Assembly: GCA_944325005.1 (NCBI GenBank)
Contig: CALUYO010000001.1
Coordinates: forward strand, 269,646 to 333,645
DNA: 64,000 bases
From: Candidatus Gastranaerophilales bacterium
GTDB lineage: Bacteria; Cyanobacteriota; Vampirovibrionia; Gastranaerophilales; Gastranaerophilaceae
Reading direction: 5' to 3'
Shown: positions 6,170 through 37,587 of the stretch, piece after piece
Position numbering within the stretch: the first letter of the stretch is position 1
Layout: each line of letters begins with the position of its first letter
Notes under the pieces: model-generated
Seen by the model: only the letters and a program-made list of their open reading frames with translations
Told to the model about the DNA's origin: nothing
Databases searched by the model: none
Program-made: the position numbers and the translations under genes

Positions 6170-7084
6170 TTATTTACATTTGTTTTTCCCGTCCCATGTA
6201 AGGTCATTACAGTGAAGGTAATCCATATTTTCGTTAAATATTACCCAGGCTGTACAGCCATAACCGTTTATAATATTTGGAATTGAAGGGTTACATTTTT
6301 CCTCAAATGTAAACTGTGTCTCTTCTGCAGTACCTACAGGTATGACACCATATTTTGTATAATAAAACATGAATACGTCTTTCCCTGTTGTATTGGGTGG
6401 GGTTTTACCATTCAGGTCAACAAATAATTCTCCGCAAACGTTTTGCAGTGGTACAGAGTTCCCAAAATTGCTTTTACATTGTGGCGATAGTATTGTAACT
6501 CCAAGGATATTAGTCCCGTCAGCTAAAGTAATATATGGTGAAAAAGTCCCAAATTCTGTTCCGTCTAATGAATATCTTTTCCATTTCTCAACTTTATTTT
6601 TGCATGAATCTCCATATGGACAATATTGGATAGTTTTAAGATATTTCTGTAGTTTTTCTCCGAAGAGATTTCGCGAAATATCTGCCTGAGCTAGTTCCTC
6701 ATCGCTCATACCATCATTAGACGAGTATCGTGTAAGCCCCCAATCTTCAATAGGTCCCTCTTCACTTATTGCCATTAACATTGCCTGACTCATAAGGCTG
6801 TTAAATTTTTTAAGTTTAGTTGTATATTCTTTTTCCTTTTGATTTTGAATTAATGACGGCATCGTCATTGCGGCAACAACGCCTATAATTCCAAGTGTAA
6901 TTAAAACTTCCGCAAGAGTGAATGCAAATTTGTGATTTTTTAAATGGTGATGCATAATATCACTATAACCTATTTTACAATTATTGTAAAGTGCAGAATT
7001 ACATAAAATTTTGAAATGTTTAATCCCCTTATTTACCGTATGTCTCGCGGGGGGGGGGGCGACCCTAGATGCTCTTATATTCAT
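6170..7084 (-). CDS. prepilin-like protein with an in-frame C11 tract (phase ON), locus 1
   Basis: A type IV pilin or pseudopilin-like protein of 304 residues. The start at 7084 follows AGGAGG. Its ninth to twelfth codons run through an 11-base C tract (peptide VAPPPAR), and a leader of about 50 residues precedes the cleavage signature KFAFTLAEVLITLGIIG with Glu at +5. The globular part has several cysteines. An in-frame internal ATG at 6955 (MHHHLKNHKF) has a good promoter ending six bases upstream and could give a shorter, switch-independent form. The other four tracts have ten bases and break the frame; this one does not. No close functional class is recognisable beyond prepilin-like. Confidence 0.8.
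   Translation of the reverse strand: MNIRASRVAPPPARHTVNKGIKHFKILCNSALYNNCKIGYSDIMHHHLKNHKFAFTLAEVLITLGIIGVVAAMTMPSLIQNQKEKEYTTKLKKFNSLMSQAMLMAISEEGPIEDWGLTRYSSNDGMSDEELAQADISRNLFGEKLQKYLKTIQYCPYGDSCKNKVEKWKRYSLDGTEFGTFSPYITLADGTNILGVTILSPQCKSNFGNSVPLQNVCGELFVDLNGKTPPNTTGKDVFMFYYTKYGVIPVGTAEETQFTFEEKCNPSIPNIINGYGCTAWVIFNENMDYLHCNDLTWDGKNKCK
6962..6990 (-). promoter_or_regulatory. internal leaderless promoter of prepilin locus 1
   Basis: On the minus strand: TTTACA (6990-6985), a 17-base spacer, TATAGT (6967-6962), then six bases and the in-frame ATG at 6955. There is no ribosome binding site, so transcription should begin at or next to the start codon. Confidence 0.5.
7049..7059. repeat. homopolymer G11 tract, locus 1
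   Basis: Eleven G on the + strand, so C on the coding strand of the prepilin gene. It follows codon 8. Eleven bases keep the start at 7084 in frame with FTLAEV. The flank CGACCCTAGATGCTCT aligns with the flanks of the other four tracts. Confidence 0.95.
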
Positions 7085-7146
7085 TGCTTCAGCCTCCTAT
7101 ATAACTTTATTATGTATTATTTTGTTGGAATTGTCAATATCTTAAG

Positions 7147-8418
7147 CTACATAGGCAGTTTTATGCAAAACTCCGTTTTTACATTTTCTTCACTGGTAAC
7201 AGTGATTTCTCCTCCATGGGATTTAACAATCTGCTGGGAAAGATATAAGCCAAGGCCGGTACCTATTTTTCGGAATTTTTTTGCTGCGGAATAATATTTA
7301 TTGAATATAAGTTTTAATTCATTTGATGGTATTCCCTGCCCGTAATCTATTACGGAAATTGTTATAAAGCCAGGGATTTCGCCGGTTGTTATATCAATTC
7401 TGTCTTTAGTATTACTGTGTGAGATGGCATTGGATATCAGGTTTTTAATAACTCTTTCCAGCTGCATTGAATCTGCTGTTACTTTAATATCTCTTGACGG
7501 TGTGAAATAGATTGTTATACCTGAGTTGTTTGCAATCGGTTGTGTACTTTCTACAATATCCGATATAAATTTATTGAGCATAATATTTTCTTTCAGCAGT
7601 TTAATACCTGTTTCTTTAATTTTATATGTTTCAAGAATAATTTGCACAAGGTCAACAAGTTCTTCATTTGATTTTTTCATGTTTAAAAGTGCAACCTGTT
7701 GTTTTTCTGTTATTTCTCCGAATGTTCCATTCAAAAGAAAGTTTATTATATTGGATTCAGCAACAATCGGCACTTTTAAGTCATGTGTTAGAGTTGCAAC
7801 AAAATCCTCTTTTAGGGTTTCAATTTCTCTCTCTTTGGTTACATCTTTTATAAGAATTACGTATCTTTTTTTATCATCGTCTAACGATAATTTTATGGAA
7901 TGCATTATAAAGTTATTAGTAGGTGTATGTTTTACAAATATATCTTTGCCTTTTAATCTTTCTATAGGGGTATCATCACTGATTTGAATATAGTCAAAGA
8001 TATTTGTGCCGATAATTTCCTGTCCTTTTGCTCCGAACCATTCACTTACCTGAGGGGTTACGCGTAGAATATTATGTTTATCATTAATAATCAAAATCCC
8101 GTCTGAAAGCGAATTAATCACTGATTCCAACAGTTTATTCTGGCGCATGAGTTCCGCCTGATATTCCACAATCATTTTTTCTCTGTCATTCAGTGTTTCT
8201 ACCATTCTGTTAATACTGTCTGTTACATTCTGGTAGGTGGGATGATTAATCTCATCAATTTTTGTGGATAAGTTTCCGTATCTTACCGAGTTTACGGTAT
8301 TTGTGACCATGCCTAAATAGTCGTTAATCTTTGACCAGCGTTTGTTTGTCTGACGTGTGATTAAGAATAATATGATAAATACAAATATAATACAGAAATT
8401 TAACAGGTACCAGAGCAT
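7147..8418 (-). CDS. membrane sensor histidine kinase with PAS domain
   Basis: A 423-residue sensor kinase. It has one membrane segment at 1-20, a HAMP-like linker, a coiled coil (about 75-100), a PAS domain (about 100-195), a dimerisation helix with the phospho-accepting His212 (ATLTHDLKVPI), and a HATPase domain with an N box (LISNAISHS), G1 (DYGQGIP) and G2 (GTGLGLYLS). No periplasmic sensor domain is present, so it probably senses inside the cell or in the membrane. No response regulator adjoins it. The SD is GAGAGGG, and a TATAAT lies in the gap shared with the divergent phosphatase gene. Confidence 0.9.
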   Translation of the reverse strand: MLWYLLNFCIIFVFIILFLITRQTNKRWSKINDYLGMVTNTVNSVRYGNLSTKIDEINHPTYQNVTDSINRMVETLNDREKMIVEYQAELMRQNKLLESVINSLSDGILIINDKHNILRVTPQVSEWFGAKGQEIIGTNIFDYIQISDDTPIERLKGKDIFVKHTPTNNFIMHSIKLSLDDDKKRYVILIKDVTKEREIETLKEDFVATLTHDLKVPIVAESNIINFLLNGTFGEITEKQQVALLNMKKSNEELVDLVQIILETYKIKETGIKLLKENIMLNKFISDIVESTQPIANNSGITIYFTPSRDIKVTADSMQLERVIKNLISNAISHSNTKDRIDITTGEIPGFITISVIDYGQGIPSNELKLIFNKYYSAAKKFRKIGTGLGLYLSQQIVKSHGGEITVTSEENVKTEFCIKLPM

Positions 8419-8472
8419 TTGTTTTTCCCTCTCTTTATGTTAAAATTATACCAGATAAGGGATATTTTGTAT

Positions 8473-8955
8473 ATGGGAAAGTTAAAATTACCTGAAACTA
8501 TTAAAATGGTTATAACGGATTTTGATGGTGTTGTTACTGATAACTGTGTGTATATCAGCGATGGTGGAACAGCTGCAAGAAAATTAAACTTTAAAGATAT
8601 AATGGCTTTTTCGATGTTAAGAAAAAATAATTATATGATAGGAATTATTTCGGGAGAAAAAAATTCTGCAATTGAAATGCTTGCCGAAAAATTCCGGATA
8701 GAGGAAGTTCATCAAAATGTAAGAATTAAAATAGATGTTTTGAAAAATATTGTTTCTAGATATAACCTGTCAAAAGACGAATTTGTCTATATTGGAGATG
8801 ATATTAATGACATTGAATGTCTTAATTTTTCTAAATATAAAATCACTGTGCCGCATTCGGTTCAAAAAGTTAAAGAAGTTGATGGTATTCAGATTACTGA
8901 AAATAATGCAGGTGACGGAGCGTTTCGTGAGGTAGCGGATTGTTTGATTGGTTAA
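8473..8955 (+). CDS. KdsC-like HAD phosphatase
   Basis: A 160-residue C0-type HAD phosphatase without a cap, like KdsC, which removes phosphate from Kdo-8-phosphate in LPS synthesis. Motif I is DFDGVVTD, motif II the Ser of ISGE, then Lys, and motif III/IV GDDINDIE. Related enzymes act on N-acylneuraminate-9-phosphate, so the substrate is not fixed. I chose ATG 8473, which has AAGGGA upstream; an upstream in-frame extension would reach into the kinase promoter. The last 16 bases overlap the next gene. Confidence 0.8.
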   Translation: MGKLKLPETIKMVITDFDGVVTDNCVYISDGGTAARKLNFKDIMAFSMLRKNNYMIGIISGEKNSAIEMLAEKFRIEEVHQNVRIKIDVLKNIVSRYNLSKDEFVYIGDDINDIECLNFSKYKITVPHSVQKVKEVDGIQITENNAGDGAFREVADCLIG

Positions 8956-10433
8956 AAAATATTATTACTAAAGTGAGGAGTTTAAGCAGCTCCGTAGATA
9001 AGTTTAAAAAAGAAACAGTAATACAATCTTTGCCTTCTTATACTTATGTTAACAGGGCGAAGTTGCTTATTGAGCAAAATAAATATGAGGAAGCCCGTAA
9101 TATTCTGCTTGAAGCTCTTGAATTGCCGCAGAAAGATGCGCTGGTTTATAAATATCTCGGCAGTGCTTATGAAAAACTCGGGGAATTTGATAAAGCTGTT
9201 GACTCTTACCAGACATCAGCCGATTTGAACCCGCAGGATAGGATTATATGGCAGCGGCTCGGGTTTGCTCTGATATCAGTTAAAAAGTATGAAAATGCTG
9301 TTAAATCATTTGAAAATGCAACAAGAATTCAGCCAAATAATTCGGATACATATACCGGCTGGGGCATGGCATTAATGAGACTTCAAAAATTTTCGGAGGC
9401 CCATGATAAATTTCTTGAAGCTGTGAAACATTATAAATATAATTTTACCGCTGTGTTCCTTTGTGCTGTTATGGAAATTAAACTTGAAATGTTCGATAAG
9501 GCGGAAGCAAAACTTACTTTTCTTGCCAATGTCTGCCCGAATGCAAATAATACTTTTGAATTTGCCAGACTCAAATATTTAAAACATGATTATGACAGTG
9601 CTATTCATTATGCAAAAAAATCTATTGATTTTAATTCAAAAATGCTGCCTTCATATCTTCTTCTCGGCGAGCTGTATGCAATGAAGTTTGACTGTGAAAA
9701 CTCTCAGAAATATTTTTCTGAAGCAGAAGAAAAAGATCTGAAAAATTCTGCACTTTACCTTGAATGGGGAAAAGCTTTAGAAAAATTTGAACGGTATGAT
9801 GAAGCTAAAATAAAACTTCTAAAGGCTCTTGAACTCGAACCTGACAATCTTGAAATAACTTCATATCTGGGTTTATGTTGTGTTTCAAAAAAAGAACTTG
9901 AAGAAGCAAAACCCTTACTGGAAAAGGTGCTTGAAAAAGAATCTGAAAATAAAATTGTAAAGCAGGCACTCGGTATTATAGCTTTTGAAGAAGATGATAT
10001 TGATAAAGCTATTGAATTGCTGAGGATTGACGATGAAGATGCAGTGAATTGTTATTATCTTGCAAAATGTTACGAAAAATTGAATAAAGATACAAAAGTT
10101 AAAGATTATTACGAAGCATCAATACGACTTAATCCAAAGTATATTACCGCTTTTACCGATTACTCAAAATACCTTGTTTCCAGAAAAGACTATGCAGACG
10201 CTCAGAGAAAATTGCGAAAAGCATTAAAAGCAGATGATAACAATGTTGTACTGTTAAATTTAATGTTTTATGCAAGTTACATGCTTGTCAAAGAAAACCT
10301 TTGCGAATATAATGTTAAAGAAACAATTTCTATAGCGGATAAGATTGAAAATATTGACAGGAATTTGTTTGAATACCCTGAGCAAAAAGCTGAATTAACG
10401 GCAATTTTGCAAAAAAATGCGGAAAGAGATTAA
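8940..10433 (+). CDS. tetratricopeptide repeat protein
   Basis: A 497-residue protein made almost wholly of TPR units, from about residue 35 to 450 (for example ALVYKYLGSAYEKLGEFDKA). It has no signal peptide or membrane segment, so it is probably a cytoplasmic scaffold. It starts with TTG at 8940 after GAGGTAG, inside the end of the phosphatase gene, and its 3' end lies against lysC. The three genes look like one transcription unit. TPR content alone does not reveal the partner. Confidence 0.8.
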   Translation: MFDWLKNIITKVRSLSSSVDKFKKETVIQSLPSYTYVNRAKLLIEQNKYEEARNILLEALELPQKDALVYKYLGSAYEKLGEFDKAVDSYQTSADLNPQDRIIWQRLGFALISVKKYENAVKSFENATRIQPNNSDTYTGWGMALMRLQKFSEAHDKFLEAVKHYKYNFTAVFLCAVMEIKLEMFDKAEAKLTFLANVCPNANNTFEFARLKYLKHDYDSAIHYAKKSIDFNSKMLPSYLLLGELYAMKFDCENSQKYFSEAEEKDLKNSALYLEWGKALEKFERYDEAKIKLLKALELEPDNLEITSYLGLCCVSKKELEEAKPLLEKVLEKESENKIVKQALGIIAFEEDDIDKAIELLRIDDEDAVNCYYLAKCYEKLNKDTKVKDYYEASIRLNPKYITAFTDYSKYLVSRKDYADAQRKLRKALKADDNNVVLLNLMFYASYMLVKENLCEYNVKETISIADKIENIDRNLFEYPEQKAELTAILQKNAERD

Positions 10434-10434
10434 A

Positions 10435-11703
10435 TTGAGAAAAATTATTGTTCAAAAATTCGGCGGAACCTCGGTAGCTGATACAGATAAGATTAAAAAT
10501 GTTGCAAAGACTGTAATTAGGGAAAAAGAAAACGGAAATGATGTAGTAGTTGTAGTTTCTGCGATGGGGCACACTACTGATTATCTTGTTAAAATGGCAA
10601 GAGATTTGAGTTCTAATCCCTCTGAACGTGAGATGGATATGTTGTTATCTACAGGGGAAGGGGTTTCTATTGCTCTTCTTGCAATGGCTATTCAGGCACA
10701 GGGTTATGATGCTGTAAGTTTTAATGCTATGCAGATTGGTATTATGACAGAAAATATTCATTCAAAGGCAAGAATTATTGATATCAAAACCGATAAATTA
10801 AAAGAGAATTTAAAACAAGGAAAAATTATAGTAGTGGCGGGCTTTCAGGGAGTTACAGAGGACGGCGAAATTACAACACTCGGAAGAGGCGGTTCTGATA
10901 CATCAGCTGTTGCCCTTGCGGCTGCATTAAATGCGGAAAGATGTGATATTTATACAGATGTTGAGGGGGTTTATACTACAGATCCTCGCGTTGTTCCAAA
11001 TGCTTCCCGTCTCGACGAGGTTTCTTATGAAGAAATGCTTGAGCTTGCTCATGCAGGTGCAAATGTACTCCATCCGAGAAGTGTAGAAACTGCAAAACAG
11101 TTTAACGTTCCCCTCAGAGTGAGAAGCAGTTTTAAATTAGATAATTTGGGTACTTTAATATTAGGAGTTGATAAAATGGAAATTTATAAACCTGTGACAG
11201 GTGTTGCTGCTGATTTATCTCAGGCAAGAATTGTTGTCTGCGATGTTCCCGATAAGCCGGGTGTTGCAGCAAAATTATTCAGTAAGCTGGCAAAAGAAAA
11301 TATCTCTGTAGATATGATTATTCAATCTTATGCAAGAAAGGTTTCTAATACAAATGATATTGCATTTACGGTTGAAGCTTCTGATCTTCCTAAAACAGTG
11401 AAAGCTTTAGAGGCCTTAAAATCTGAAATAGGTGCAACAGGTGAGATTCAGGTTGACGAAAATATTGCTAAGGTTTCAATTGTCGGGGCGGGTATGATTG
11501 ACCGGCCGGGTGTTGCTTCCGCAATGTTTGAAACACTTGCAGAACAAGGAGTTAATATTAGAATGATATCTACCAGTGAGATTAAGATTAGTTGTCTTGT
11601 TGATAAGGCAGATGCAGATCGGGCAGTAAAAGCTCTGCATAAAGCTTTTGATTTAGAGTGCTCTGAAATCGCTGAAGTTAAGGGCGATTTGCCAGATGTA
11701 TAA
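10435..11703 (+). CDS. lysC: aspartate kinase
   Basis: Phosphorylates aspartate, the first step toward lysine, threonine and methionine (and diaminopimelate for the cell wall). The kinase domain carries KFGGTSVAD at the N-terminus, GRGGSDTSAVALAAAL and TDPR. Two ACT domains follow (from about 265 and 345), the usual site of feedback control by lysine or threonine. I prefer TTG 10435, preceded by GGAAAGAG at good spacing. An ATG at 10417 is in frame but has no SD and lies inside the upstream gene. A terminator follows at 11735. Confidence 0.93.
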   Translation: MRKIIVQKFGGTSVADTDKIKNVAKTVIREKENGNDVVVVVSAMGHTTDYLVKMARDLSSNPSEREMDMLLSTGEGVSIALLAMAIQAQGYDAVSFNAMQIGIMTENIHSKARIIDIKTDKLKENLKQGKIIVVAGFQGVTEDGEITTLGRGGSDTSAVALAAALNAERCDIYTDVEGVYTTDPRVVPNASRLDEVSYEEMLELAHAGANVLHPRSVETAKQFNVPLRVRSSFKLDNLGTLILGVDKMEIYKPVTGVAADLSQARIVVCDVPDKPGVAAKLFSKLAKENISVDMIIQSYARKVSNTNDIAFTVEASDLPKTVKALEALKSEIGATGEIQVDENIAKVSIVGAGMIDRPGVASAMFETLAEQGVNIRMISTSEIKISCLVDKADADRAVKALHKAFDLECSEIAEVKGDLPDV

Positions 11704-11734
11704 AAATTAAAAAGATATTAATAAATGATTATTG

Positions 11735-11758
11735 AAAGCGGTTTATACCGCTTTTTTA
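11735..11758 (+). terminator. rho-independent terminator after lysC
   Basis: GCGGT-TTAT-ACCGC stem extended by AAA/TTT pairs and followed by a T run, 32 bases after the lysC stop. Confidence 0.8.
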
Positions 11759-12050
11759 TATAAAAGAAAAGGAGCCTTACGGCTCCCGTTGGAATTAAGA
11801 ATAGCTGGAAGTATGAAAAAGATTTAATGATTATATTTAACAGAATAAGTGTTATTTATACAATTACCCGTTCGGGTAATAAAAAAATCCTACCGGCTAA
11901 TAATAAAAATATAAATATTACCCATGCTTCTATATTTATTATAAGAGTGAAAAAACATTCTTGCTTGAATAAGTGTAAGTTCGCCACTTTATGCTGTAAT
12001 TCACTGGCATCAATGTTTTTATTTCTCTTAATAAAACTTTATACCAGGGG
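11759..12050. other. intergenic stretch without a convincing gene
   Basis: About 290 bases with low coding signal. It holds two small hairpins, GGAGCC-TTAC-GGCTCC near 11771 and ATTACCCG-TT-CGGGTAAT at 11863-11880. Neither is followed by a T run. The short open frames on either strand have no SD and overlap promoter sequence, so I do not call them. Confidence 0.5.
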
Positions 12051-12079
12051 TTGACAAATAATTTTTTATGGTTTATATT
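12051..12079 (+). promoter_or_regulatory. sigma-70 promoter of the 12153 gene
   Basis: TTGACA at 12051-12056 (consensus), a 17-base spacer and TATATT at 12074-12079. The expected start point is near 12086, inside the repeat cluster that follows. Confidence 0.8.
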
Positions 12080-12081
12080 AA

Positions 12082-12126
12082 AAGTGTTAAATGAAGTGTT
12101 AATTAAACACTTAATTAGACACTTAA
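12082..12126 (+). promoter_or_regulatory. four 9-bp half-sites at 12-bp spacing (operator or leader hairpin)
   Basis: AAGTGTTAA at 12082 and 12094 is followed by the inverted forms AACACTTAA at 12106 and GACACTTAA at 12118. All four start exactly 12 bases apart, and the cluster covers the predicted transcription start. It can be read as a double operator or, in RNA, as a hairpin with two 7-bp stems. Either way it would control the small gene at 12153. Confidence 0.6.
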
Positions 12127-12152
12127 TAATAAGCCTCAGAGAGGAGGAAATT

Positions 12153-12440
12153 ATGATAACTGTTAATCCCGTAAAATTTAATACTGTAAAACCGATTTCT
12201 TTCGGTGAAGGTAATCTTAATAATATAACCCCGAGTGTAGCGATTTTGTCGTTACAAAACCCAAATGCGAAAATTAATTTCGAAAATGACCTTAACCGCA
12301 CTCAGAGAGCGGATATGGTTCAAAATCCGAATATGCTGAACGCTTTAGGCGCTAAGCTTCGCAAGACTTATAATATACTATTTTCACCTGATTACGACAG
12401 AGCAAGCAAAAGTCCTAAACATATTTCATTTTTAGGTTAG
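12153..12440 (+). CDS. small hypothetical protein, 95 aa
   Basis: Not recognised. The start follows an excellent GAGGAGG box. The protein is soluble, with Asn-rich segments (SLQNPNAKINFENDLN) and a basic middle, and it ends in ISFLG. Its own near-consensus promoter and the repeat cluster in the leader show that it is real and probably strongly and specifically regulated. No domain, metal site or signal peptide is visible. Confidence 0.65.
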   Translation: MITVNPVKFNTVKPISFGEGNLNNITPSVAILSLQNPNAKINFENDLNRTQRADMVQNPNMLNALGAKLRKTYNILFSPDYDRASKSPKHISFLG

Positions 12441-12539
12441 TAATCATAATGCTTATTCTGCCGTAAGTTTACCCCACCCTAAAAACTTGCTTCATCGATT
12501 ATAACCATGTTGCTAAGTAATTTTTTTATAGATTGCTTT

Positions 12540-12567
12540 ATCCTTTCTGTAGTAATACAGAAAGGAT
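12540..12567 (+). promoter_or_regulatory. perfect 12-bp inverted repeat covering the rhodanese ribosome binding site
   Basis: Arms 12540-12551 (ATCCTTTCTGTA) and 12556-12567 (TACAGAAAGGAT) pair perfectly around the loop GTAA. The right arm contains the AAAGGAT Shine-Dalgarno of the next gene, so the folded RNA would hide the ribosome binding site. Confidence 0.65.
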
Positions 12568-12575
12568 ATTCAATT

Positions 12576-12962: not shown

Positions 12963-12970
12963 ATTTTTGA

Positions 12971-13003
12971 GAGAGTACATGATAATAGAATACAGGTACT
13001 CTC
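12971..13003 (+). terminator. possible terminator after the rhodanese gene
   Basis: GAGAGTAC and GTACTCTC form an 8-bp stem with a 17-base loop, then a short T run. The loop is long, so the call is weak. Confidence 0.35.
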
Positions 13004-13054: not shown

Positions 13055-13770
13055 ATGAAAATGAAAAGATTTTGTAATGTCGGGGGGGGGGCGAACTAGA
13101 AGCTCCTGTTCCGGCTTTTACACTTGCAGAAGTATTGATTACTCTTGGAATTATAGGAGTTATTGCATCTATTACTATTCCTAATGTTGTTGCAAAATAT
13201 CGTGCTTCTGTTTTAAGAACGCAGTTTAAAAAATCATACAGTATTTTATCTCAGGCACTAAGTTTGACAGCAGAAGAACTTGGAGGTAATCTTCATGAAA
13301 TGTTTAAAGATGAACCTCCAGGGTTTGACGGGGCTGTATTATTTCGTGAAACTTTTAATAATTATCTGATATCAACTTTAGAATTAAAAAAATCATCCCA
13401 ATTGTTCGCATTTGCACCTTATAATAAAAATTTAGAAAGCGATGATACTACAATGGGGCTCGGTACATATCCTGGATATATTATATTAGGTGATGGTACT
13501 GCTGTTTCTGTATTGAAAAATAATGATAGATTGAATGTACTGGTTGATATAAATGGGCTTAAACGTCCAAATCGTGCCGGTTATGATACTTTTTTGTTTG
13601 TAGTGGATACAAAACAGGATATTTTAACAAGCTGGTCTCAGGATGCTCAGAAATATTGTTCCAAAACATCTTCACATTCCTATAACGGACGTGCATGCAC
13701 ATATTATGCAATGATTGATAGGAGTCCAGACGATAGTTCAAAGGGATATTGGGAAGCTTTAGATTTTTAA
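13055..13770 (+). pseudogene. prepilin-like gene split by a G10 tract (phase OFF), locus 2
   Basis: The start at 13055 has an AAAGGAG box. Translation runs MKMKRFCNVGGGAN and stops at TAG 13097. The prepilin frame (PAFTLAEVLITLGIIG, then about 200 residues to 13770) is displaced by one base. An eleventh G would give a continuous 238-residue protein that passes from the glycine run through ELEAPVPA into the prepilin signature. There is no other usable start: the prepilin frame has a TAA at 13075 just before the tract. The body holds cysteines near the end, as in the other loci. I regard it as a switched-off gene, not a dead one. Confidence 0.8.
13082..13091. repeat. homopolymer G10 tract, locus 2
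   Basis: Ten G on the + and coding strand, nine codons after the start. Ten bases break the frame and eleven restore it. The flank GCGAACTAGAAGCTCCTG matches, in the opposite gene orientation, the flanks of loci 1, 3 and 5. Confidence 0.95.
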
Positions 13771-17337: not shown

Positions 17338-17371
17338 AAAAGAGCTGCCTTTTAAGGCAGCTCTTTTTTAT
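17338..17371 (+). terminator. bidirectional terminator between adhE and prepilin locus 3
   Basis: AAAGAGCTGCCTT and AAGGCAGCTCTTT pair over 13 bp with runs of A before and T after, so it can stop transcription from both converging genes. Confidence 0.85.
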
Positions 17372-18158
17372 TCTTCTGAACCTATTTTATAGTCTTCATA
17401 AGAAAAATTTTCATTTCCGGATAAAATATTTTCCAGACTGGTGCGTCCTAAATAAGGTTGTACACCTGGTCGCAAAAAATTTTTCTCAATCTGTACATAA
17501 TATGCGTCTTGTCCAAATCTGTTCGGCAGTTTAGGACCATTCACATCAAAGTAAATGTATGCACATACTGTATTTAGTGATGTTGCTGTAACCGGTTTAC
17601 CATCTGCATCCAGTATAGGTCTTCCATTTTCATCATGTTTTTCATACGTTTCCTCACCGTAACAGTCAGGAATATGGCTTTGATTAACATATAATATGGC
17701 TCCATTAGTAAGAATAATAGCAGGCATATATGTTACCAGCCATTCAACTCCGGCATCTCCGCCGTCAGTGTAAAATTTAGAGTATTTAATCCCGTAATAA
17801 AATTGAGAACAGTTATCCTGAGACATATTTTCGCATAGTTTTGCCCCGTTAAAATACTTTACAAACTGCTGTGCTGTTTCAAAATGTGTGTTATTCGGAT
17901 TAAAAAATATTGAATTATCATTCAGACTTCCACCTTCCATACGGCTTAAACTTACCGCGTTACTTATGTCTGAATAAGTTTTTTTTACTCTTGTAATAAG
18001 CTCTTTATCTTTATGTTTGCTTATTAGTGACGGTAAAGTCAACGAGGCAACAACCCCGATAATTCCCAGAGTAATTAAAACTTCTGCAAGTGTGAAACCA
18101 CTGTGCAGGTCTGTATTTTGCGGGGGGGGGGCACTCTAAAAGCTTCTTGTATAAACAT
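17368..18158 (-). pseudogene. prepilin-like gene split by a C10 tract (phase OFF), locus 3
   Basis: The start at 18158 follows AGGAGG. It encodes MFIQEAFRVPPPR and soon runs into a stop because the C tract has ten bases. Adding one C gives 263 codons without interruption: MFIQEAFRVPPPPQNTDL, then SGFTLAEVLITLGIIGVV and a body ending near NFSYEDYKIGSEE. The residue before the cleavage-site Phe is Gly, the best prepilin peptidase context. There is no in-frame ATG between the tract and the signature, so expression depends on tract length. The first eight codons are clearly related to those of locus 5. Confidence 0.8.
18122..18131. repeat. homopolymer G10 tract, locus 3
   Basis: Ten G on the + strand (C on the coding strand), after codon 9 of the prepilin leader. 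Eleven bases would restore the frame. The flank CACTCTAAAAGCTTCTTGT aligns with loci 1, 2 and 5. Confidence 0.95.
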
Positions 18159-23338: not shown

Positions 23339-23490
23339 AGAAAATATCCCCCATAGGTTATATTTTCTGTTTAAACATATATATTGTCAATGGTTTATTG
23401 AGTTTATTGAAGTTTGTCTAAAAATATGGTATAATAAATAAAGAAATGAAAGGAGCATATATGAAAAAGATTGTATTGTTTGAGGCCTGC

Positions 23491-23500
23491 GGGGGGGGGG
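23491..23500. repeat. homopolymer G10 tract, locus 4
   Basis: Ten G on the + and coding strand, directly after codon 10. One more G joins the SD-led start to the prepilin frame. Confidence 0.95.
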
Positions 23501-23533
23501 CGCTTTAAGGCTATTTAAAAGCATTTTATCCTA

Positions 23534-23561
23534 TTGGAAAATTTTTAAAATATGTTATAAT
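23534..23561 (+). promoter_or_regulatory. internal leaderless promoter of prepilin locus 4
   Basis: TTGGAA at 23534-23539, a 16-base spacer and an extended -10 TGT-TATAAT at 23556-23561, then six bases to ATG 23568. There is no ribosome binding site between. Confidence 0.55.
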
Positions 23562-24249
23562 AGTGACATGAAACTTCATAAATATGATATTTATAAAAAT
23601 GGTTTTACCCTTGCCGAGGTTCTGGTTACTTTAGGAATTATCGGAGTTGTTTCGGCTATGACAGTTCCGACTTTAATGCAAAATCATCAGCGAAAGACTT
23701 ATGTAGTTCAATTGCATAAGGTTTATAATGATTTTTCGCAGGCAGCTTTACGTTATATGACTGACAGAAATGCATTAAACCTTACTGAAGCTGGTCTGAC
23801 TGATATTAACAGTGCAGATAGTTTTATAAAAACTTATTTTAAAATTGTTAAAGATTGAGGCTCTGATGCTTCTGATTGTGTTGCATCGGAGTATAAAAAA
23901 CTTGATGGCACAGCTCTTGTGCCCTTTCCGGATGGAAATGAAAGACATACTTATATCCTTACAAGTGGAGCCGCTGTTCATGTATTTATGGCTCCAAACG
24001 TGGTAAATGCTTTGCAGATACACGTTGATGTAAACGGAACTAAAGGTCCTAATATTATAGGAAGAGATGTTTTTGCTTTAATGCTTTATAGGAACGGAGT
24101 TATTGACGACTATGCAAATGGTGTAACACAGCCTCCCTTGACAGAAGAACAGAGAGAAACAAGTTATACAACATGGTGTAATAGTTCTACTGTAACTTTC
24201 TGGGGGTGTTTCGGTAAACTTTTAAATGATAACTGGGAGATGACATATT

Positions 24250-24279
24250 AAAAAAGAAGGCTTATAGCCTTCTTTTTTA
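24250..24279 (+). terminator. bidirectional terminator
   Basis: AAAGAAGGC-TTATA-GCCTTCTTT stem flanked by A and T runs, shared by prepilin locus 4 and the converging dnaJ-type gene. It overlaps the last base of the locus 4 stop and the last codon of the chaperone. Confidence 0.85.
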
Positions 24280-30797: not shown

Positions 30798-30821
30798 TTT
30801 ATTTACCTTTTGTTATTACTA

Positions 30822-31166: not shown

Positions 31167-31195
31167 TTTTTTATTTCCTTATTCTTTTAATTGCG

Positions 31196-31477
31196 TTACT
31201 TACGTTTAGCAGTCTTATCAGAGCCTGCGTGTCCTTTGAATAATCTTGTCGGTGCAAACTCACCTAATTTGTGTCCGATCATTTGTTCTGTTACATAAAC
31301 CGGTACATGAGTTTTTCCGTTGTGAACCGCGATTGTATGTCCTAACATATCAGGTACAATCATGGATGCTCTTGACCAAGTTTTTATAACTTTCTTTTCA
31401 GAGTTTGCATTCATTTTTGCGATTTTGTTTTGTAGAGCTTCTTCTACGTATGGACCTTTTTTTAATGAACGTGCCAT
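31196..31477 (-). CDS. rpsS: 30S ribosomal protein S19
   Basis: Part of the 30S head, near A-site tRNA. 93 residues, [19 protein letters not shown] at the start and [18 protein letters not shown] near the end. AGGAGA box upstream. Confidence 0.96.
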
Positions 31478-31548
31478 TAATATTTTCTCCTTATTGGTTC
31501 AAAGGCTTGCGGGGGCATTAGCCCCGTTGCCTATTTATTAGTTATTTC

Positions 31549-32376
31549 TTATTTTTTTCTTCTTCTAACAATTAATTTATCAGAAGCTTTTCCTATTTTT
31601 CTTGTCTTATGACCAAGAGCCGGTTTACCCCAAGGTGTTTTCGGGTGTCCGCCCGGACCTGTTTTACCTTCTCCACCGCCGTGTGGGTGATCGCATGGGT
31701 TCATTGTAACACCACGTACTGTAGGTCTGATACCTAAGTAACGTTTTCTTCCGGCTTTACCGATAGAAAGGTTTTTAAATTCTGCGTTACCTAATGTACC
31801 GATTGTTGCCATACATTCTTTTCTTACCATTCTCATTTCTGAAGATGGAAGTTTAATTGTTACATAGTTGCCTTCTTTAGCCATTACCTGAGCAGCATTA
31901 CCTGCAGCTCTTACCATAACGCCGCCACGACCAGGTGTAAGTTCAATGTTATGAACTATTGTACCTAACGGAATTAATTCAAGCGGAAGTGCATTACCTG
32001 TCTGAACAGGTGCTTCTGGACCGCTTACAATTACGTCGCCTACATTTAAGCCTTCAGGTGTTAAGATATATCTTTTTTCACCATCTGCGTAGTAGACTAA
32101 AGAAATTCTAACGTTTCTGTTCGGATCGTATTCAATAGTTTTAACTGTTGCAGGTACGCCGAATTTTTCACGTTTGAAGTCTATGATACGGTATGCTCTT
32201 TTCACACCGCCTCCTTTGTGGCGGCATGTAATTCTACCTGTATTATTTCTTCCTGCTGTTTTTTTCAATGATTTTAACAATGATTTTTCAGGAGTTGTGC
32301 AAGTGATTTCCTGGTAATCACTTTTTATCATCCCTCTTTGTCCTGGAGATGTTGGATTTATTTTTCTTGTTGCCAT
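31549..32376 (-). CDS. rplB: 50S ribosomal protein L2
   Basis: Needed for subunit joining and peptidyl transfer. 275 residues. The functional histidine loop is intact ([20 protein letters not shown]), as are the N-terminal [19 protein letters not shown] and the basic tail KLIVRRRKK. Confidence 0.97.
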
Positions 32377-32486
32377 TTTTATTTTTCTCCTTTAGTTGGC
32401 TTTGTACTGTTACGGGACTTGTGCCTTGCGTGCTCGCTTTTAAAAGTACGTTTTCTGCTTGCCCGCGCCGCCCCTTAGTTTTGGAA

Positions 32487-32795
32487 TTAAGCTCCGATTA
32501 ATTCTTCAATCGGATCGCCTTCGATTGTTACGATGGCTTTTTTAGAAGAGTCAGTTCTTCCGAATTTATATCCCATTCTTTTTTCGTGAGAAGGCATATA
32601 AACTGTTCTTACTTTTTTAACCTTTCTTCCTGGAAAAGCTAATTCTACAGCTTGAGCAATTTCAACTTTTGTTGCGTCTTTTACAACTTCAAAAGTGTAT
32701 TGACCGAGAGTTGTAGCACCTACAGACTTTTCAGTTATGATAGGTTTTTTGATTACATCATATAATTTTTCCGTATTTGTTTTTGCTTTACTCAT
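32487..32795 (-). CDS. rplW: 50S ribosomal protein L23
   Basis: The docking site for trigger factor and SRP at the exit tunnel. 102 residues, with DVIKKPIITEKSVGA and GRKVKKVRTVYMPSHEKRMG. The start overlaps the last base of rplD, so translation is coupled. Confidence 0.95.
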   Translation of the reverse strand: MSKAKTNTEKLYDVIKKPIITEKSVGATTLGQYTFEVVKDATKVEIAQAVELAFPGRKVKKVRTVYMPSHEKRMGYKFGRTDSSKKAIVTIEGDPIEELIGA

Positions 32796-33421
32796 TATTG
32801 CAGCCTTTCTGTTATATCGTTAACAGCAGATTCGGTAATTACAACAGAATCAGCTTCCAGTAAATCTTTCACATTAAGGTTTGAAGGTAAAATAATTTTT
32901 ACGCTCGGGATGTTTCTTGCAGCTAATTCTAAGTTTTTATTTTCTTCAGCTTTTACATCTGCAACGATTAAGATTTTACCTGTTACGTTTAATGATTTTA
33001 ATGCACTAACCATCAATTTTGTTTTTGGTTCAGTGATAGCAGAGAAGTCTTTTACAACAATCATTTGTTCGCTTCTTGCTGACAATGCTGATTTGATAGC
33101 TAATTGTCTTGCTTTTTGAGGCATATTGAAAGCGTAGCTTCTTGGTTTTGGCCCGAAGATTACGCCGCCGCCTGCGAACAATGGTGAACGTAAAGAACCA
33201 GCTCTTGCTCTACCTGTACCTTTTTGTTTCCAAGGTTTTTTACCGCCGCCAGAAACTTCTGCTCTTGTTTTAGCGCATGCAGAACCCTGACGAGCATTGT
33301 TCAATTGTCTTCTTAATGCTAAGTGCATTACGTGTAAATTAGGTTCAACACCGAATACATTTTCATTCAATGTAATTTCGCCTAATTTTTCTCCATTTGT
33401 ACTTAATATTTCTTTTGACAT
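32795..33421 (-). CDS. rplD: 50S ribosomal protein L4
   Basis: Tunnel-lining protein and, in E. coli, repressor of the S10 operon. 208 residues with the tunnel loop KPWKQKGTGRARAGSLRSPL and GGVIFGPKPRSY. Whether it regulates this operon cannot be told from the sequence. Confidence 0.96.
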   Translation of the reverse strand: MSKEILSTNGEKLGEITLNENVFGVEPNLHVMHLALRRQLNNARQGSACAKTRAEVSGGGKKPWKQKGTGRARAGSLRSPLFAGGGVIFGPKPRSYAFNMPQKARQLAIKSALSARSEQMIVVKDFSAITEPKTKLMVSALKSLNVTGKILIVADVKAEENKNLELAARNIPSVKIILPSNLNVKDLLEADSVVITESAVNDITERLQ

Positions 33422-33526
33422 TTTTGTTTTCCTTTATTAATTACCGTTTACCTCTTTCGATTGTTAATCGTTTTATATGGCAACTCGGGGAGTGTGTGTT
33501 TACTCTTTTCAAAATTTAATTCGCGA

Positions 33527-34162
33527 CTAGTTCCATTTAGTTCTTGTAGGAACGATAGTTACTAATCTGCCTTCGCATCCTGGTACTGAACCTTTTACTA
33601 ATACTAAGCTGTTAGCTGTATCAACTTTAACTAATTTCAATTTAGTAATAGTAACTCTTTCATTTCCCATGTTACCAGCCATTCTTTTACCTTTGATAAC
33701 ACGTGAAGGGGTTGTACCTGCACCGATAGAACCAGGTTCTCTGTGGTTTTTAGAACCGTGACCCATAGGTCCTCTTGAGAAGTTCCATCTTTTTACTGTA
33801 CCCTGGAAGCCTTTACCTATTGATTTTCCTGTTACGTCAACTTTTTCAACGTTGTCAAGAACTGATAATTCAATTTTGTCACCTACTTTGTAATCAGACG
33901 GGTTATCAACTCTGAATTCTTGCAGGTGTCTGAAGTTTTCAAGGTTATTTTTCTTAAAGTGACCTATTTCAGCTTTTGTTAAATGTTTTTCTTTAGCTGC
34001 GATTGTGCCTACCTGAATAGCGTTATAACCGTCTGTTTCAACAGTTTTTACCTGAGTAACAACAATCGGGTCTACTTTGATTACAGTTACGGGAATTGCC
34101 AAACCTTGTTCATCAAAGATTTGAGTCATTCCAAGTTTTTTACCTATTACACCTAGTGTCAT
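33527..34162 (-). CDS. rplC: 50S ribosomal protein L3
   Basis: Sits close to the peptidyl transferase centre. 211 residues, MTLGVIGKKLGMTQIFDEQG at the start and the signature GFQGTVKRWNFSRGPMGHGS. The 225-base gap up to rpsJ holds no gene. Confidence 0.96.
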   Translation of the reverse strand: MTLGVIGKKLGMTQIFDEQGLAIPVTVIKVDPIVVTQVKTVETDGYNAIQVGTIAAKEKHLTKAEIGHFKKNNLENFRHLQEFRVDNPSDYKVGDKIELSVLDNVEKVDVTGKSIGKGFQGTVKRWNFSRGPMGHGSKNHREPGSIGAGTTPSRVIKGKRMAGNMGNERVTITKLKLVKVDTANSLVLVKGSVPGCEGRLVTIVPTRTKWN

Positions 34163-34387
34163 ATTCTACCTTTCTTGCTCGCCCTACTTGGTGCAGACAT
34201 TAATCTGCCCCTGTTTCGGGTTTGCATTTTCTCTTGCGAGCGCTACGTCTTGCTAATTCTTTACCTAATTGAGGGCTTTCACCTCTACAACCTTTTGGCT
34301 GTCCCGTTTGAAGCAATTTAATTCACTTCAATCCGGCCGCAGTTCACATTACAATGCATAATGCTTATTAAGTTGTCAAAAAGTTAA

Positions 34388-34705
34388 TTAAAGTTTAACT
34401 TCAATATCTACGCCAGCCGGCAGGTCTAATCTGCCTAATTCTTCAACTGTTTGTTGAGTTGGTTCGTATATATCAATAATACGTTTATGTGTTCTCATTT
34501 CAAAATGTTCACGGGATTTTTTATCAACGTGGGGTGAACGCAAAACGCAATATATACGTCTTTTTGTAGGTAAAGGAATAGGTCCGGCTACTTTAGCGTC
34601 TGTTCTTTTTGCTGTTTCTACGATTTTGTCTGAAGATACGTCAATTAATTTATGATCGTATGCTTTTAAACAAACTCTGATTCTTTGTCTAGTTGTAGTT
34701 GCCAT
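34388..34705 (-). CDS. rpsJ: 30S ribosomal protein S10
   Basis: Head protein and, as NusE, a transcription antitermination partner. First gene of the operon. I start at 34705 ([20 protein letters not shown]): the AAGGA box touches the upstream ATG at 34711 and is correctly spaced only for this one. [23 protein letters not shown] is the family block. Confidence 0.95.
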
Positions 34706-34805
34706 TTGCATTCCTTTTTCTTTTTTATATTGTATTACACTGCTTGAAACTGCTATTCAACAAATATTTCGGATATTAGTAAATACATTAATTCCAAGCA
34801 TATCA

Positions 34806-34834
34806 ATGGTAAAACAAACAAATCCCGCTGTCAA
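34806..34834 (-). promoter_or_regulatory. promoter of the S10 ribosomal operon
   Basis: On the minus strand TTGACA (34834-34829), a 17-base spacer and TACCAT (34811-34806). It is about 100 bases before rpsJ, leaving room for a leader. Confidence 0.65.
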
Positions 34835-34946
34835 CAAGACAAAGTTTAAAATGTATATTAATGTTACGAAATATTTCTGAAATTATTTTTTTTTCTTTAT
34901 TTTTTTACATTTTGTAATAAGCTTGATGTTAGATATAGGGGTTTTT

Positions 34947-36281
34947 ATGAGAATTAAAAGTGTTTTGGCAAGTAACGCCGGTGTTCAAACTTTTACTGCT
35001 GGGAAAGTAAATGTATATTCTGATTTTGACGGGACATATTTCCCTTCGAGTCATTCTCGTATTAATAATCTGCAATACGGACATGCTAAATGGCTGAATG
35101 AATATTTCTATGATTTCGGAAATTTTTTAAATAATTCAAAGGATGATATCAATTTTAAAATTACTACAGGCAGAACGTTCGGAGAATTTAAGACAATTGC
35201 AAAACTATTGAAATCAAAAGGTTTTTCTATGCCTTTACCGGATGCACTTATTACAAAAAACGGCTCTGATGAATATTTAAAAGTTAATAGTGATGAAAAC
35301 TTTTATAAATCGTGCACTTTCCCATTTGATTACAAAAAAGCAAATTTAAAAAAGCAGGAGGCTATAAAGGACTTAACCGGCTGGAATGGACAAGCTTTGA
35401 GGCCTAAAATATATGAAGCATTACGAAAGTTTAATTTTAAAGTTGTAGAATTTGATTCGGAACATGGGGTTAATGATTACGGTCGTAAATCTTTGTTTTC
35501 TCATACGGGTTATGACAATTTTATGCTTTATGGAGATAATATGCCTCCCAAAAGCCATTGGCTGGCAGGCTTGAGAAAAGATGGAAGTTTGAAATATTAT
35601 CTCAGTTTTCCCTATGATATGCTGAATGTTTCAGAGCGTCGCGGAGCTTATGGGGATATAAGATATAATATTTCAAAGTATTTAAAAAATTCCGGAGTGA
35701 AATTTGTAATGGAAGAATTTTGTGATAAAGACGGTGGTAACCGTCCGGTTATCGTAATTTCTCCTAAAATTGACGGTAAACCGCTTGATAAACTTTATGA
35801 TACTAAAGAAGCTGTACGCAAAGCAGTTATTAATAATGATTTTGTAATTGCTGCCGGTGACGGAAGTAATGATTTTGAGATGCTTAATCCTTTAAATTAT
35901 ATTGATAAGTCAGATTTACATCCGGATTTGCAAAAACAACTGGCCGGCCTTACAGATGAAAATATAGATAAAGTTGTTGAAAATCCGCTTATTGTAAGAA
36001 AATTAAGAAAACTGCCTTTTATCGGGATAGTTATAAAAGATGATAATAACGGCTTAGATAAATTATATAAATTATTTGGTAAATACGGAAAAGTAATAGA
36101 GGTTGAGCGTGGAAATCTGCCGGCTGGAATTAAAAATGCTATAAAAATGTATTCAATGAGCAAACCTGAATTTTTGTCATCGATGAGCCAAAACTTAAAA
36201 GTTGCTGTTGGTATTATGCAGGATGAAATATGGAAATATGCAATAAAGCTTTTGCAGTGGAATAGTATTACAAAATTTTAG
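34947..36281 (+). CDS. HAD-superfamily hydrolase (sucrose-phosphatase/Cof-like)
   Basis: A 444-residue HAD phosphatase. Motif I is SDFDGTYFPSS, motif II the Thr of ITTGR, and motif III/IV GDGSNDFEML, with a large cap between them. This order fits the Cof/sucrose-phosphate-phosphatase class. About 100 extra residues follow the HAD core. I use ATG 34947 because AGGGG stands before it. The cytoplasmic substrate is unknown and no sugar pathway gene lies nearby. Confidence 0.75.
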   Translation: MRIKSVLASNAGVQTFTAGKVNVYSDFDGTYFPSSHSRINNLQYGHAKWLNEYFYDFGNFLNNSKDDINFKITTGRTFGEFKTIAKLLKSKGFSMPLPDALITKNGSDEYLKVNSDENFYKSCTFPFDYKKANLKKQEAIKDLTGWNGQALRPKIYEALRKFNFKVVEFDSEHGVNDYGRKSLFSHTGYDNFMLYGDNMPPKSHWLAGLRKDGSLKYYLSFPYDMLNVSERRGAYGDIRYNISKYLKNSGVKFVMEEFCDKDGGNRPVIVISPKIDGKPLDKLYDTKEAVRKAVINNDFVIAAGDGSNDFEMLNPLNYIDKSDLHPDLQKQLAGLTDENIDKVVENPLIVRKLRKLPFIGIVIKDDNNGLDKLYKLFGKYGKVIEVERGNLPAGIKNAIKMYSMSKPEFLSSMSQNLKVAVGIMQDEIWKYAIKLLQWNSITKF

Positions 36282-36287
36282 TGATTC

Positions 36288-36605
36288 CTATTTTGGAAGC
36301 CTTTTAAAATAGTCTTGTTCTGAGAGTGCTTTTGCAGTATTGAGATATTTCATTAAGATTCCTTTTAATTCTTGACGCATTATAGATGAAGTTACAGGAT
36401 ATCCGTTTTCCTGCTCGTACATTTTAAGGGCCTGAGCTAATGTCGAATATCCTTTTTTTAAACCTGTTTCAAGTTCTTTATTTTTTGTTGTTGAAACAAT
36501 TGCGGGAAGCGTTAATGCAGCAACTACCCCGATAATTCCCAGAGTAATTAAAACTTCAGCAAGTGTAAATGTTTTATTACTGCAAGGTTTAATTTTTGTG
36601 AACAT
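36288..36605 (-). CDS. short prepilin-like protein without G tract
   Basis: A 105-residue protein with a 12-residue basic leader, the signature KTFTLAEVLITLGIIGVVAAL and only about 75 residues after it, far fewer than the 200 of its relatives. Thr instead of Gly or Ala precedes the cleavage-site Phe. It has no homopolymer, and the start, which is nearly back to back with the HTH gene at 36609, has no SD. It may be a minor pseudopilin or a truncated copy that ends after the conserved helix region. Confidence 0.6.
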   Translation of the reverse strand: MFTKIKPCSNKTFTLAEVLITLGIIGVVAALTLPAIVSTTKNKELETGLKKGYSTLAQALKMYEQENGYPVTSSIMRQELKGILMKYLNTAKALSEQDYFKRLPK

Positions 36606-36608
36606 TAT

Positions 36609-36791
36609 ATGGAAGATGTTATTGATCTCAACACATGCAGAAAAACTAAAGCTTTTAGGACAGCAAATAAAAAACTGAGAAAATCACGTGGATTTTCTCA
36701 GTTAAATCTTTCTGTAAAATTGGGTATAACACGTGAACATTTATCAAAAATTGAACGCGGAGTTACTTTTAAAGATATTTCAAATTTCTAA
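36609..36791 (+). CDS. short XRE-type helix-turn-helix protein, probably truncated
   Basis: 60 residues. The segment LRKSRGFSQLNLSVKLGITREHLSKIERG is a clear XRE/Cro helix-turn-helix. The usual last two helices are missing after KDISNF, so the fold is incomplete. It begins four bases from the divergent short prepilin gene. It could be a remnant of a regulator or a minimal DNA-binding protein. Confidence 0.5.
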   Translation: MEDVIDLNTCRKTKAFRTANKKLRKSRGFSQLNLSVKLGITREHLSKIERGVTFKDISNF

Positions 36792-36808
36792 AGTAAACTG
36801 GTAATACT

Positions 36809-37587
36809 TTACCAGGGATAGTTATCAGGGATTTTCCATCCGTTTACTTCAATTAATCGTCCGCAATAAAAGTTTCTATACTTCTGATTGTTGGTTTTAT
36901 AGCATCCATATCCATGTGGTGACGCTGTCGTTAGAATATCATTATCTTGGTATAAAGCACCCCAAAACTTAATTTTATAGCCTATGCCATAAAAGTTGTA
37001 TGCGTCAAACACAAAGACATCTCTTCCCATTTTATTTAAGCCTTTCTGTCCGTTGATGTCAGCCAATAACCATATATATCCGTTTGGGATATTTGCAAAA
37101 AATGCCAGTATGACTCCATTGTTTAATAAAAGATAAAGCTTTATACCTGCAAAAAGTTGACTGCCATCCTCATTTAATAGCATTTTGTAATCAGGCATAT
37201 CAGATGATTTAACAATTTTTGCTCCTTGAAAATATGGTAAATAATACTGCTCAACAAAGGGGGCGATACAATCATACTCATAGCATTCTTTTTCCGGATA
37301 AGTCCAATCTGGCATAGGACCATTGTCGATTTCTGATAATTTTACTGCATTATTCAAATCAGAATAAACTTTTCTAAGCTGAACTACAGTTTGATGTTTC
37401 TGGTAATTTGTAATTAATGCCGGCATGGTCAAAGCAGCAATGATGCCTATAATCCCGAGAGTGATTAACACTTCTGCCAAAGTAAAAGCAAATAAATAAT
37501 TACTTAAATTTTTAAAAGTCCTGATATGGCACGTTAAATGGCATGTTTGCGGGGGGGGGGCAATCTCAAAGCTCCTTGTTTAAACAT
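36809..37587 (-). pseudogene. prepilin-like gene split by a C10 tract (phase OFF), locus 5
   Basis: The start at 37587 follows AGGAGG and encodes MFKQGALRLPPPRKHAI, then a stop. Adding one C gives an uninterrupted 259-residue protein: MFKQGALRLPPPPQTCHL, a further basic leader, then LFAFTLAEVLITLGIIG and a body ending CGRLIEVNGWKIPDNYPW. No in-frame ATG lies between tract and signature, so expression should depend on tract length. The first eight codons resemble those of locus 3, which points to a shared cassette. Confidence 0.8.
37551..37560. repeat. homopolymer G10 tract, locus 5
   Basis: Ten G on the + strand (C on the coding strand), after codon 9. Eleven would restore the frame. The flank CAATCTCAAAGCTCCTTGT aligns with loci 1, 2 and 3. 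Confidence 0.95.

What the first reader, a model, noticed from the sequence alone, without database searches (positions are those of the whole stretch)
7049..37587. A five-member prepilin-like gene family with phase-variable G/C tracts at the 5' end
Seen directly: G or C runs of 11, 10, 10, 10 and 10 bases at 7049, 13082, 18122, 23491 and 37551, each 8 to 10 codons after an SD-led ATG and upstream of the prepilin signature. For all five, 11 bases join the start to FTLAEV and 10 do not. Runs of ten G are not expected by chance in DNA this AT-rich, let alone five times in the same gene context. Known: G/C tracts of this length vary by slipped-strand mispairing in Neisseria, Campylobacter and Helicobacter surface genes. 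Inference: the genes form a stochastic ON/OFF repertoire of pilins or pseudopilins exported by the pil machinery in this window.
Basis: partly seen in the sequence, partly recalled or inferred. Interest (0 to 1): 0.95.

Follow-up and report, generated by a model that had tools for sequence, protein, structure and literature searches.

The report
Default-off pilin switches locked to replication
In one gut-bacterium genome, 85 pilin-like genes carry a run of G (78 of them exactly ten long) just after the start codon; the ten-G form leaves nearly all of these genes one base out of frame, and the Gs sit on what is predicted to be the leading replication strand whichever way the gene points, so the runs likely act as default-off switches that would turn on when replication adds one G.

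Summary
The window's genome (Ca. Gastranaerophilales) has 101 runs of 9 or more G; 85 of the 98 classified lie between an SD-led ATG and a prepilin motif. Four features set them apart from ordinary phase-variable tracts. (1) Length: 88 of 98 are exactly 10 (38 of 39 sampled in relative G007). (2) Frame: 151 of 161 length-10 prepilin tracts in seven genomes need 11, so the modal length is OFF; most non-prepilin tract genes tested are in frame at 10. (3) The tract belongs to a directional DNA element (C-G10-C-R-N5-10-GCW), found at 159 of 172 prepilin tracts in six genomes and never in mirror image. (4) Its G strand follows the replichore, not the gene: 10 sign changes in 320 neighbouring pairs, against 16 of 35 in two relatives with ordinary tracts. 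Database proteins imply 11-base alleles of two genes that have 10 here. I read this as a default-OFF pilin repertoire switched ON by a one-base, replication-coupled gain. Switching, its rate and any dedicated factor are inferred.

The parts
7047..7073 (+). Element 1: C, G11 tract (7049-7059), C-R-N-GCT flank; lies in a gene on the - strand (C-form), ATG at 7084
6170..7084 (-). Prepilin-like gene of element 1, in frame as assembled (304 aa)
   Evidence: N_methyl; model
13080..13104 (+). Element 2: G10 tract (13082-13091) and flank; gene on the + strand (G-form), ATG at 13055
13055..13770 (+). Prepilin-like gene of element 2, out of frame at 10; P0149 implies an 11-base allele
18120..18144 (+). 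Element 3: G10 tract (18122-18131) and flank; gene on the - strand (C-form), ATG at 18158
17368..18158 (-). Prepilin-like gene of element 3, out of frame at 10; P0121 has the same body with another head
23489..23512 (+). Element 4: G10 tract (23491-23500) and flank; gene on the + strand (G-form), ATG at 23461
23461..23858 (+). Prepilin-like gene of element 4, out of frame at 10; body stops at an in-frame TGA
23534..23561 (+). Promoter-like sequence inside the long head of gene 4, 6 bases before an in-frame ATG at 23568
37549..37573 (+). Element 5: G10 tract (37551-37560) and flank; gene on the - strand (C-form), ATG at 37587
36809..37587 (-). Prepilin-like gene of element 5, out of frame at 10 (DUF6613 body)

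Best explanation
Each G run is the core of a directional DNA element (C-G10-C-R-N5-10-GCT/A) that sits in the leader of a prepilin-like gene, holds most of these genes one base out of frame at its modal length of ten, and likely works as a default-OFF switch that would be turned ON when DNA replication adds one base. Shown: the lengths, the frames, the motif, the near-constant strand within a replichore, and database proteins that imply the 11-base state of two genes. Inferred: that the strand of positive GC skew is the leading strand; that the G run is therefore exposed on the lagging-strand template; that slippage there, helped by the flank or by a factor that reads it, sets the length to ten and at a low rate yields eleven; that a cell then displays only a few of about 85 pilins and returns to OFF when the extra base is lost. 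Bodies occur with different heads, which would add variety.
For: Length 10 in 88 of 98 tracts, 38 of 39 in G007 stretches, 16 of 16 in G027, 13 of 15 in G026, 6 of 10 in G019. Frame: 75 of 78 length-10 prepilin tracts need 11 in G000; 151 of 161 over seven genomes. In frame as assembled: 7 of 85 in G000, five with 11 bases. Tract genes that are not prepilins are mostly open at 10, so the length is common and the frame is set per gene class. Motif 159 of 172, mirror 0 of 172, shuffled about 1.7. Polarity: 10 changes in 320 pairs; sign equals GC-skew sign in 18 of 18 G007 stretches with tracts and 19 of 20 one-signed sets of G000; both G000 flips fall where the skew turns. Implied 11-base alleles: P0149 and P0012. 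OFF bodies stay long: 82 of 86 have 191 or more residues.
Against: No reads were available, so switching, its rate and reversibility are unseen. P0149 and P0012 are predicted proteins whose source is not shown; their DNA was not seen and they could stem from the same sample. Hardly any G007 prepilin tract is in frame (2 of 38 classified), which also fits expression by slippage in RNA or on the ribosome. No trans factor was found. 13 of 17 long heads hold a promoter-like sequence and 16 an in-frame ATG after the tract, so some genes may bypass the tract. One 5-kb set (C19) has the opposite skew. G004 has tracts of 9 and 11-13 as well, and G019 is less sharp.
Confidence: 0.6

Rival explanations
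1. Ordinary slipped-strand phase variation: each tract drifts in length and ON/OFF states are close to random; the uniformity is shared ancestry of the heads.
For: Homopolymers of this length are hypermutable in C. jejuni (passages of PMC4965091). Sister-genus genome G033 has G tracts in prepilin heads with lengths 9 to 14 and mixed frames, which looks like the ordinary state. Heads are related, so frames are not independent.
Against: Length 10 in 161 of 178 tracts of five genomes, against 9 of 29 at the modal length in G033 and G006. In the C. jejuni assay the measured loci were G8 257, G9 214, G10 431, G11 77, G12 9. 75 of 78 in one frame. Polarity and motif independent of gene strand.
Confidence: 0.17
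2. Expression slippage: all genes stay at 10 in the DNA, and RNA polymerase slippage or -1 ribosomal frameshifting on the G10 or C10 run makes a steady low level of each pilin.
For: Nearly all prepilin tracts of G007 are 10 and need 11 (35 of 38 classified); the deficit is the same in G-form and C-form genes.
Against: P0149 and P0012 imply 11 bases in DNA; five G000 prepilin tracts are 11 and in frame. Neither RNA nor ribosome slippage explains a G strand set by the replichore.
Confidence: 0.12
3. Recombination site: the oriented G run starts strand exchange at the fork, as the pilE G4 does for pilin variation, and the reading frame is a side effect.
For: Heads and bodies are modular: 21 form changes on a tree of 84 bodies against 24.2 in shuffles; in three pairs of opposite form the shared DNA starts within about 20 bases of the FTLAEV codons; P0121 joins a window body to another head.
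Against: The exchange point is near FTLAEV, not at the tract; a single G10 run is not a four-run G4 motif; it does not predict the uniform one-base deficit or the in-frame non-prepilin tracts.
Confidence: 0.08
4. Assembly or sequencing artefact at long G runs.
For: All data are assemblies; some tracts lie at contig ends or beside runs of N in relatives.
Against: Assemblies of other species agree, while the same kind of data gives lengths of 9 to 15 in G033 and G006. An artefact would not keep non-prepilin genes in frame at 10 or follow the replichore.
Confidence: 0.03

Closest known systems
Poly-G/poly-C contingency loci of Campylobacter jejuni, Helicobacter and Neisseria (families and Neisseria recalled; C. 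jejuni from passages of PMC4965091)
   Same: G/C homopolymer in a coding sequence of surface-related genes; a one-base change moves the gene in or out of frame; natural length differences implied.
   Different: Length almost fixed at ten, uniform one-base deficit in prepilins, a directional flanking motif, and a G strand set by the replichore rather than by the gene. Polarity was not tested in those species.
Neisseria gonorrhoeae pilE guanine quartet element (PMC3547852, passages)
   Same: G-rich DNA beside a pilin gene; its orientation matters for function; pilin variety.
   Different: pilE has one expression locus with silent copies and an sRNA from the G4; here about 85 loci each have their own SD and ATG and a single G10 run.
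Leading-strand oriented motifs such as KOPS and Chi (recalled, no call)
   Same: Short G-rich directional motif whose strand follows the replichore.
   Different: Those are spread over the genome; here 85 of 98 tracts sit in prepilin leaders and bear on a frame.
G tracts in prepilin heads of the sister genus (G033)
   Same: G run between ATG and FTLAEV.
   Different: Lengths 9 to 14, motif at 1 of 19, sign changes in 7 of 16 pairs, all 7 classified heads G-form.

Membership tests
Slipped-strand phase-variable contingency locus | Homopolymer of about 8 or more within a reading frame near the 5' end | tested here: met
Slipped-strand phase-variable contingency locus | A one-base change moves the gene in or out of frame | tested here: met
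   Computed for 85 heads of G000
Slipped-strand phase-variable contingency locus | Length differs between natural isolates of one species | tested here: inconclusive
   P0149 and P0012 imply 11 where G000 has 10; proteins only, source not shown
Slipped-strand phase-variable contingency locus | Spread of lengths and mixed ON/OFF states over the loci of a genome | tested here: not met
   88 of 98 at length 10; 75 of 78 length-10 prepilin tracts OFF in the same frame
Slipped-strand phase-variable contingency locus | Reversible switching observed in culture or reads | not testable with these tools
   No reads or cultures
Type IV prepilin family | N-terminal methylation motif followed by a hydrophobic helix | tested here: met
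   PF07963 on two window products and 119 matches at E <= 1 in the genome; predicted helix 57-109 in one model
Type IV prepilin family | Processing by prepilin peptidase and export | not testable with these tools
   Needs experiment
pilE-type G4 recombination element | Four G runs able to form an intramolecular G4 | tested here: not met
   Single G10 run; no G or C run of 7 or more elsewhere in the window; shorter runs not scanned as G4
pilE-type G4 recombination element | Gene conversion from silent copies into an expression locus | tested here: inconclusive
   Heads and bodies are modular, but each copy has its own SD and ATG
Diversity-generating retroelement or other reverse-transcriptase system | Reverse transcriptase present wherever the element is | tested here: not met
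   No RVT_1 match in tract-rich G007, G015 and others; 12 of 33 genomes match

The most novel reading that the evidence does not exclude
A dedicated, fork-riding editing system: a replication-associated activity reads the one-way element C-G10-C-R-N-GCW on one template strand, keeps about 100 tracts per genome at exactly ten, and releases single-base gains at a set low rate, so that the bacterium programmes which few of some 85 pilins each cell shows. It would be a length-keeping, strand-directed mutation machine rather than passive slippage.
Probability: 0.3. Interest if true: 0.95.

Novelty: new variant of a known kind. Interest (0 to 1): 0.86.

Why it matters
Contingency loci are usually treated as passive slippage with near-random states. 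Here one gut lineage carries dozens to more than a hundred tracts per genome with one length, one frame deficit and one replication strand, beside a sister genus with ordinary-looking tracts. That is a natural experiment on how replication direction and flanking sequence set homopolymer stability, and it suggests how a commensal could keep a large pilin repertoire silent by default and show it piecemeal to its host or to phages.

Tried and rejected
Reverse-transcriptase-driven writing of the tract: RVT_1 matches 12 of 33 genomes and is missing from tract-rich ones such as G007 and G015; rejected. Loss of MutS: MutS_I found in 54 of 58 genomes including the window's; rejected (MutL not tested). 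Element carried by phages: 3 stretches in viral contigs match the DNA pattern; not followed. G runs as a by-product of GC skew: skews of at most about 0.17 would not give one sign per replichore; rejected by argument, not by a test. Fold relatives of the 304-aa product: no PDB match with E <= 0.001, best pilin 1ay2 at probability 0.57; not used.

Literature (open-licence PMC papers only): no paper holds Gastranaerophilales with phase variation, Vampirovibrionia with phase-variable, or phase variation with poly-G and leading strand. Three hold Gastranaerophilales with type IV pil and three with pilin; of these I saw listings, and passages of PMC5877343. Four hold replichore, phase variation and homopolymer; passages of two, PMC5135748 and PMC5854121, do not describe this. 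Listings only, apart from passages of PMC3547852, PMC4235727 and PMC4965091.

Rows dropped: tracts with identical 60-base flanks were counted once (98 kept; one search counts 101 and lists 100). 13 of 98 got no prepilin head from the script; one of these (L078) has a variant prepilin motif and also needs 11. Tracts beside N runs were left out of the motif count. Polarity used the listed 364 of 442 tracts; two of the 10 changes involve T-preceded tracts of G026 that lack the element's C.
Full report
1. Observation. The five G runs are real and far beyond chance and are the only G or C runs of seven or more in the window. In all five genes 11 bases join the SD-led ATG to the F-T-L-A-E-V frame and 10 do not. 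The 7049 tract has 11 bases and its gene is open (304 aa); the other four have 10. All five are G on the + strand, yet the genes at 7049, 18122 and 37551 lie on the - strand, where the run reads as C.

2. Genome scale. The window lies in a 2.0-Mb genome of 27 contigs (G000) with 101 runs of nine or more G, 85 forward and 16 reverse. I fetched stretches around them. Of 98 tracts with distinct flanks, 88 have length 10, 7 have 11, and one each has 9, 12 and 14. 85 of 98 lie in a prepilin head: 55 with the gene on the G strand (G-form) and 30 with the gene on the C strand (C-form). PF07963 matches 119 places in the genome at E <= 1. In the genus, 26 of 32 relatives have 20 or more such runs and six have 0 to 11. 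The organism is placed in Ca. Gastranaerophilales by its relatives: G004 has the contig length of a Fusobacterium sp. CAG:439 record (140,362) and G007 the lengths of two records of isolate BRZ_DM__bin106 (696,212 and 371,478); this match by length is inference.

3. Frame. Of 78 length-10 prepilin tracts, 75 need 11 (mod 3), 2 are in frame and 1 needs 9; five tracts of 11 are in frame, one of 11 and one of 12 are not. Under independent random frames 75 of 78 has a probability near 4e-32, but related heads are not independent. Six further genomes: 35 of 37 in G007, 4 of 5 in G019, 11 of 11 in G027, 9 of 11 in G026, 14 of 16 in G004 and 3 of 3 in G032; 151 of 161 in all. Tract genes that are not prepilins differ. 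In G000 a polysaccharide pyruvyl transferase, a GT-D glycosyltransferase and a protein without Pfam family read through at 10, while a fourth gene needs 11; in G004 and G027 four sites, apparently two matching genes, one of them a family-2 glycosyltransferase, are open at 10. So length ten is common to tracts of both classes, and the frame differs by class.

4. Strand. Within contigs the sign hardly changes: 10 changes in 320 neighbouring pairs over 364 listed tracts (of 442 counted) in G000, G007, G019, G026 and G027. G007, with few contigs, shows two flips; G000 two, both where GC skew turns. The sign equals the sign of GC skew in 18 of 18 G007 stretches that hold tracts and in 19 of 20 one-signed sets of G000; the exception is a 5-kb set on C19, and C10 is mixed. 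The G strand is therefore most simply the leading strand; this is inference from skew. Two relatives with ordinary-looking tracts, G033 (sister genus) and G006, change sign in 16 of 35 pairs (Fisher p 6e-12).

5. Element. To the right of the G run, read on the G strand, C[AG]N5-10GC[TA] occurs at 109 of 120 G-form and 50 of 52 C-form prepilin tracts of six genomes, at 0 of 172 in mirror position, and about 1.7 times in shuffles. In G-form genes this stretch codes for residues after the tract; in C-form genes it lies between the ATG and the tract on the other strand. The conservation is thus of DNA rather than of one peptide. In G033 it is found at 1 of 19 tracts.

6. Heads and bodies. A tree of 84 bodies needs 21 changes of head form against a shuffled mean of 24.2 (48 of 500 shuffles as low for the G-form label, 39 for the C-form label). 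In three pairs of related bodies with opposite forms the best shared DNA begins within about 20 bases of the FTLAEV codons. Database protein P0121 has the window 18122 body with another head that shows no tract-coded residues; it comes from a 1.65-kb contig and a misassembly cannot be excluded. In G022, with 135 PF07963 matches at E <= 1 but four G runs, the 30 best-scoring starts all have an in-frame ATG and no G or C run above five upstream.

7. Natural alleles. P0149 has the head and the whole body of the window 13082 gene with an implied tract of 11 where the window has 10; P0012 does the same for the gene at L081:2527. Both are predicted proteins on contigs much shorter than the window's; their source is not shown, so they may be other strains or other assemblies of the same population.

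8. Mechanism. I commit to a default-OFF switch: the tract is kept at ten by replication-coupled processes acting on a one-way element and gains one base at a low rate to give ON. Shown: length, frame, strand, motif, implied 11-base alleles. Inferred: slippage as the cause, the rate, return to OFF, a part for the flank or for a reading factor, and the use of the pilins. Switching frequencies quoted in PMC4965091 for C. jejuni, 0.004 for a G8 and 0.02 for a G11 tract (passages), make an ON minority of a few percent plausible. The main rivals are ordinary drift, expression slippage and a recombination role; reads plus proteomics separate them.

9. Structure. An AlphaFold2 model of the 304-aa product (36 sequences) has a low-confidence leader (1-51), a long helix (57-109) and a beta-rich domain, mean pLDDT 79.8, pilin-like in outline; Foldseek found no PDB match with E <= 0.001.

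10. Novelty. The kind is known (homopolymer phase variation). The near-fixed length, uniform deficit, directional element and replichore polarity look like a new variant as far as my searches of open-licence papers show; polarity in Campylobacter, Helicobacter or Neisseria was not tested.

Noticed in passing
window 23534-23568; 17 long heads among 86 in G000: Long heads carry a second promoter-like sequence (13 of 17) and an in-frame ATG (16 of 17) between tract and FTLAEV; in 4 of 17 the ATG lies 3-12 bases after the -10 box, as for a leaderless mRNA. None of 49 short heads has either.
   Followed up: partly
window 23568-24260: The body of the 23491 gene has an in-frame TGA where a relative (L049) has a Cys codon; the rest of the frame is open and aligns to relatives at 57-62%.
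   Followed up: partly
G033 and G006 (L370-L398, L181-L208): Relatives with G runs of 9 to 15 in some prepilin heads, without the motif or polarity: possibly the ancestral, ordinary phase-variable state.
   Followed up: yes
L039:1659-2523: A tract of the element type lies at the 3' end of a sugar epimerase ORF, next to another sugar-nucleotide-like gene.
   Followed up: no
L058:8918: Non-prepilin tract gene that needs 11; only below-cut-off metallopeptidase matches.
   Followed up: no
window 5494-6147: ComF-like phosphoribosyltransferase with a double zinc ribbon near the 7049 gene, a hint of DNA uptake.
   Followed up: no
G022: Same-genus genome with a large prepilin set but plain leaders, so the tract heads are not needed for a large repertoire.
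   Followed up: partly
L316-L318: Three viral contigs match the element DNA pattern.
   Followed up: no
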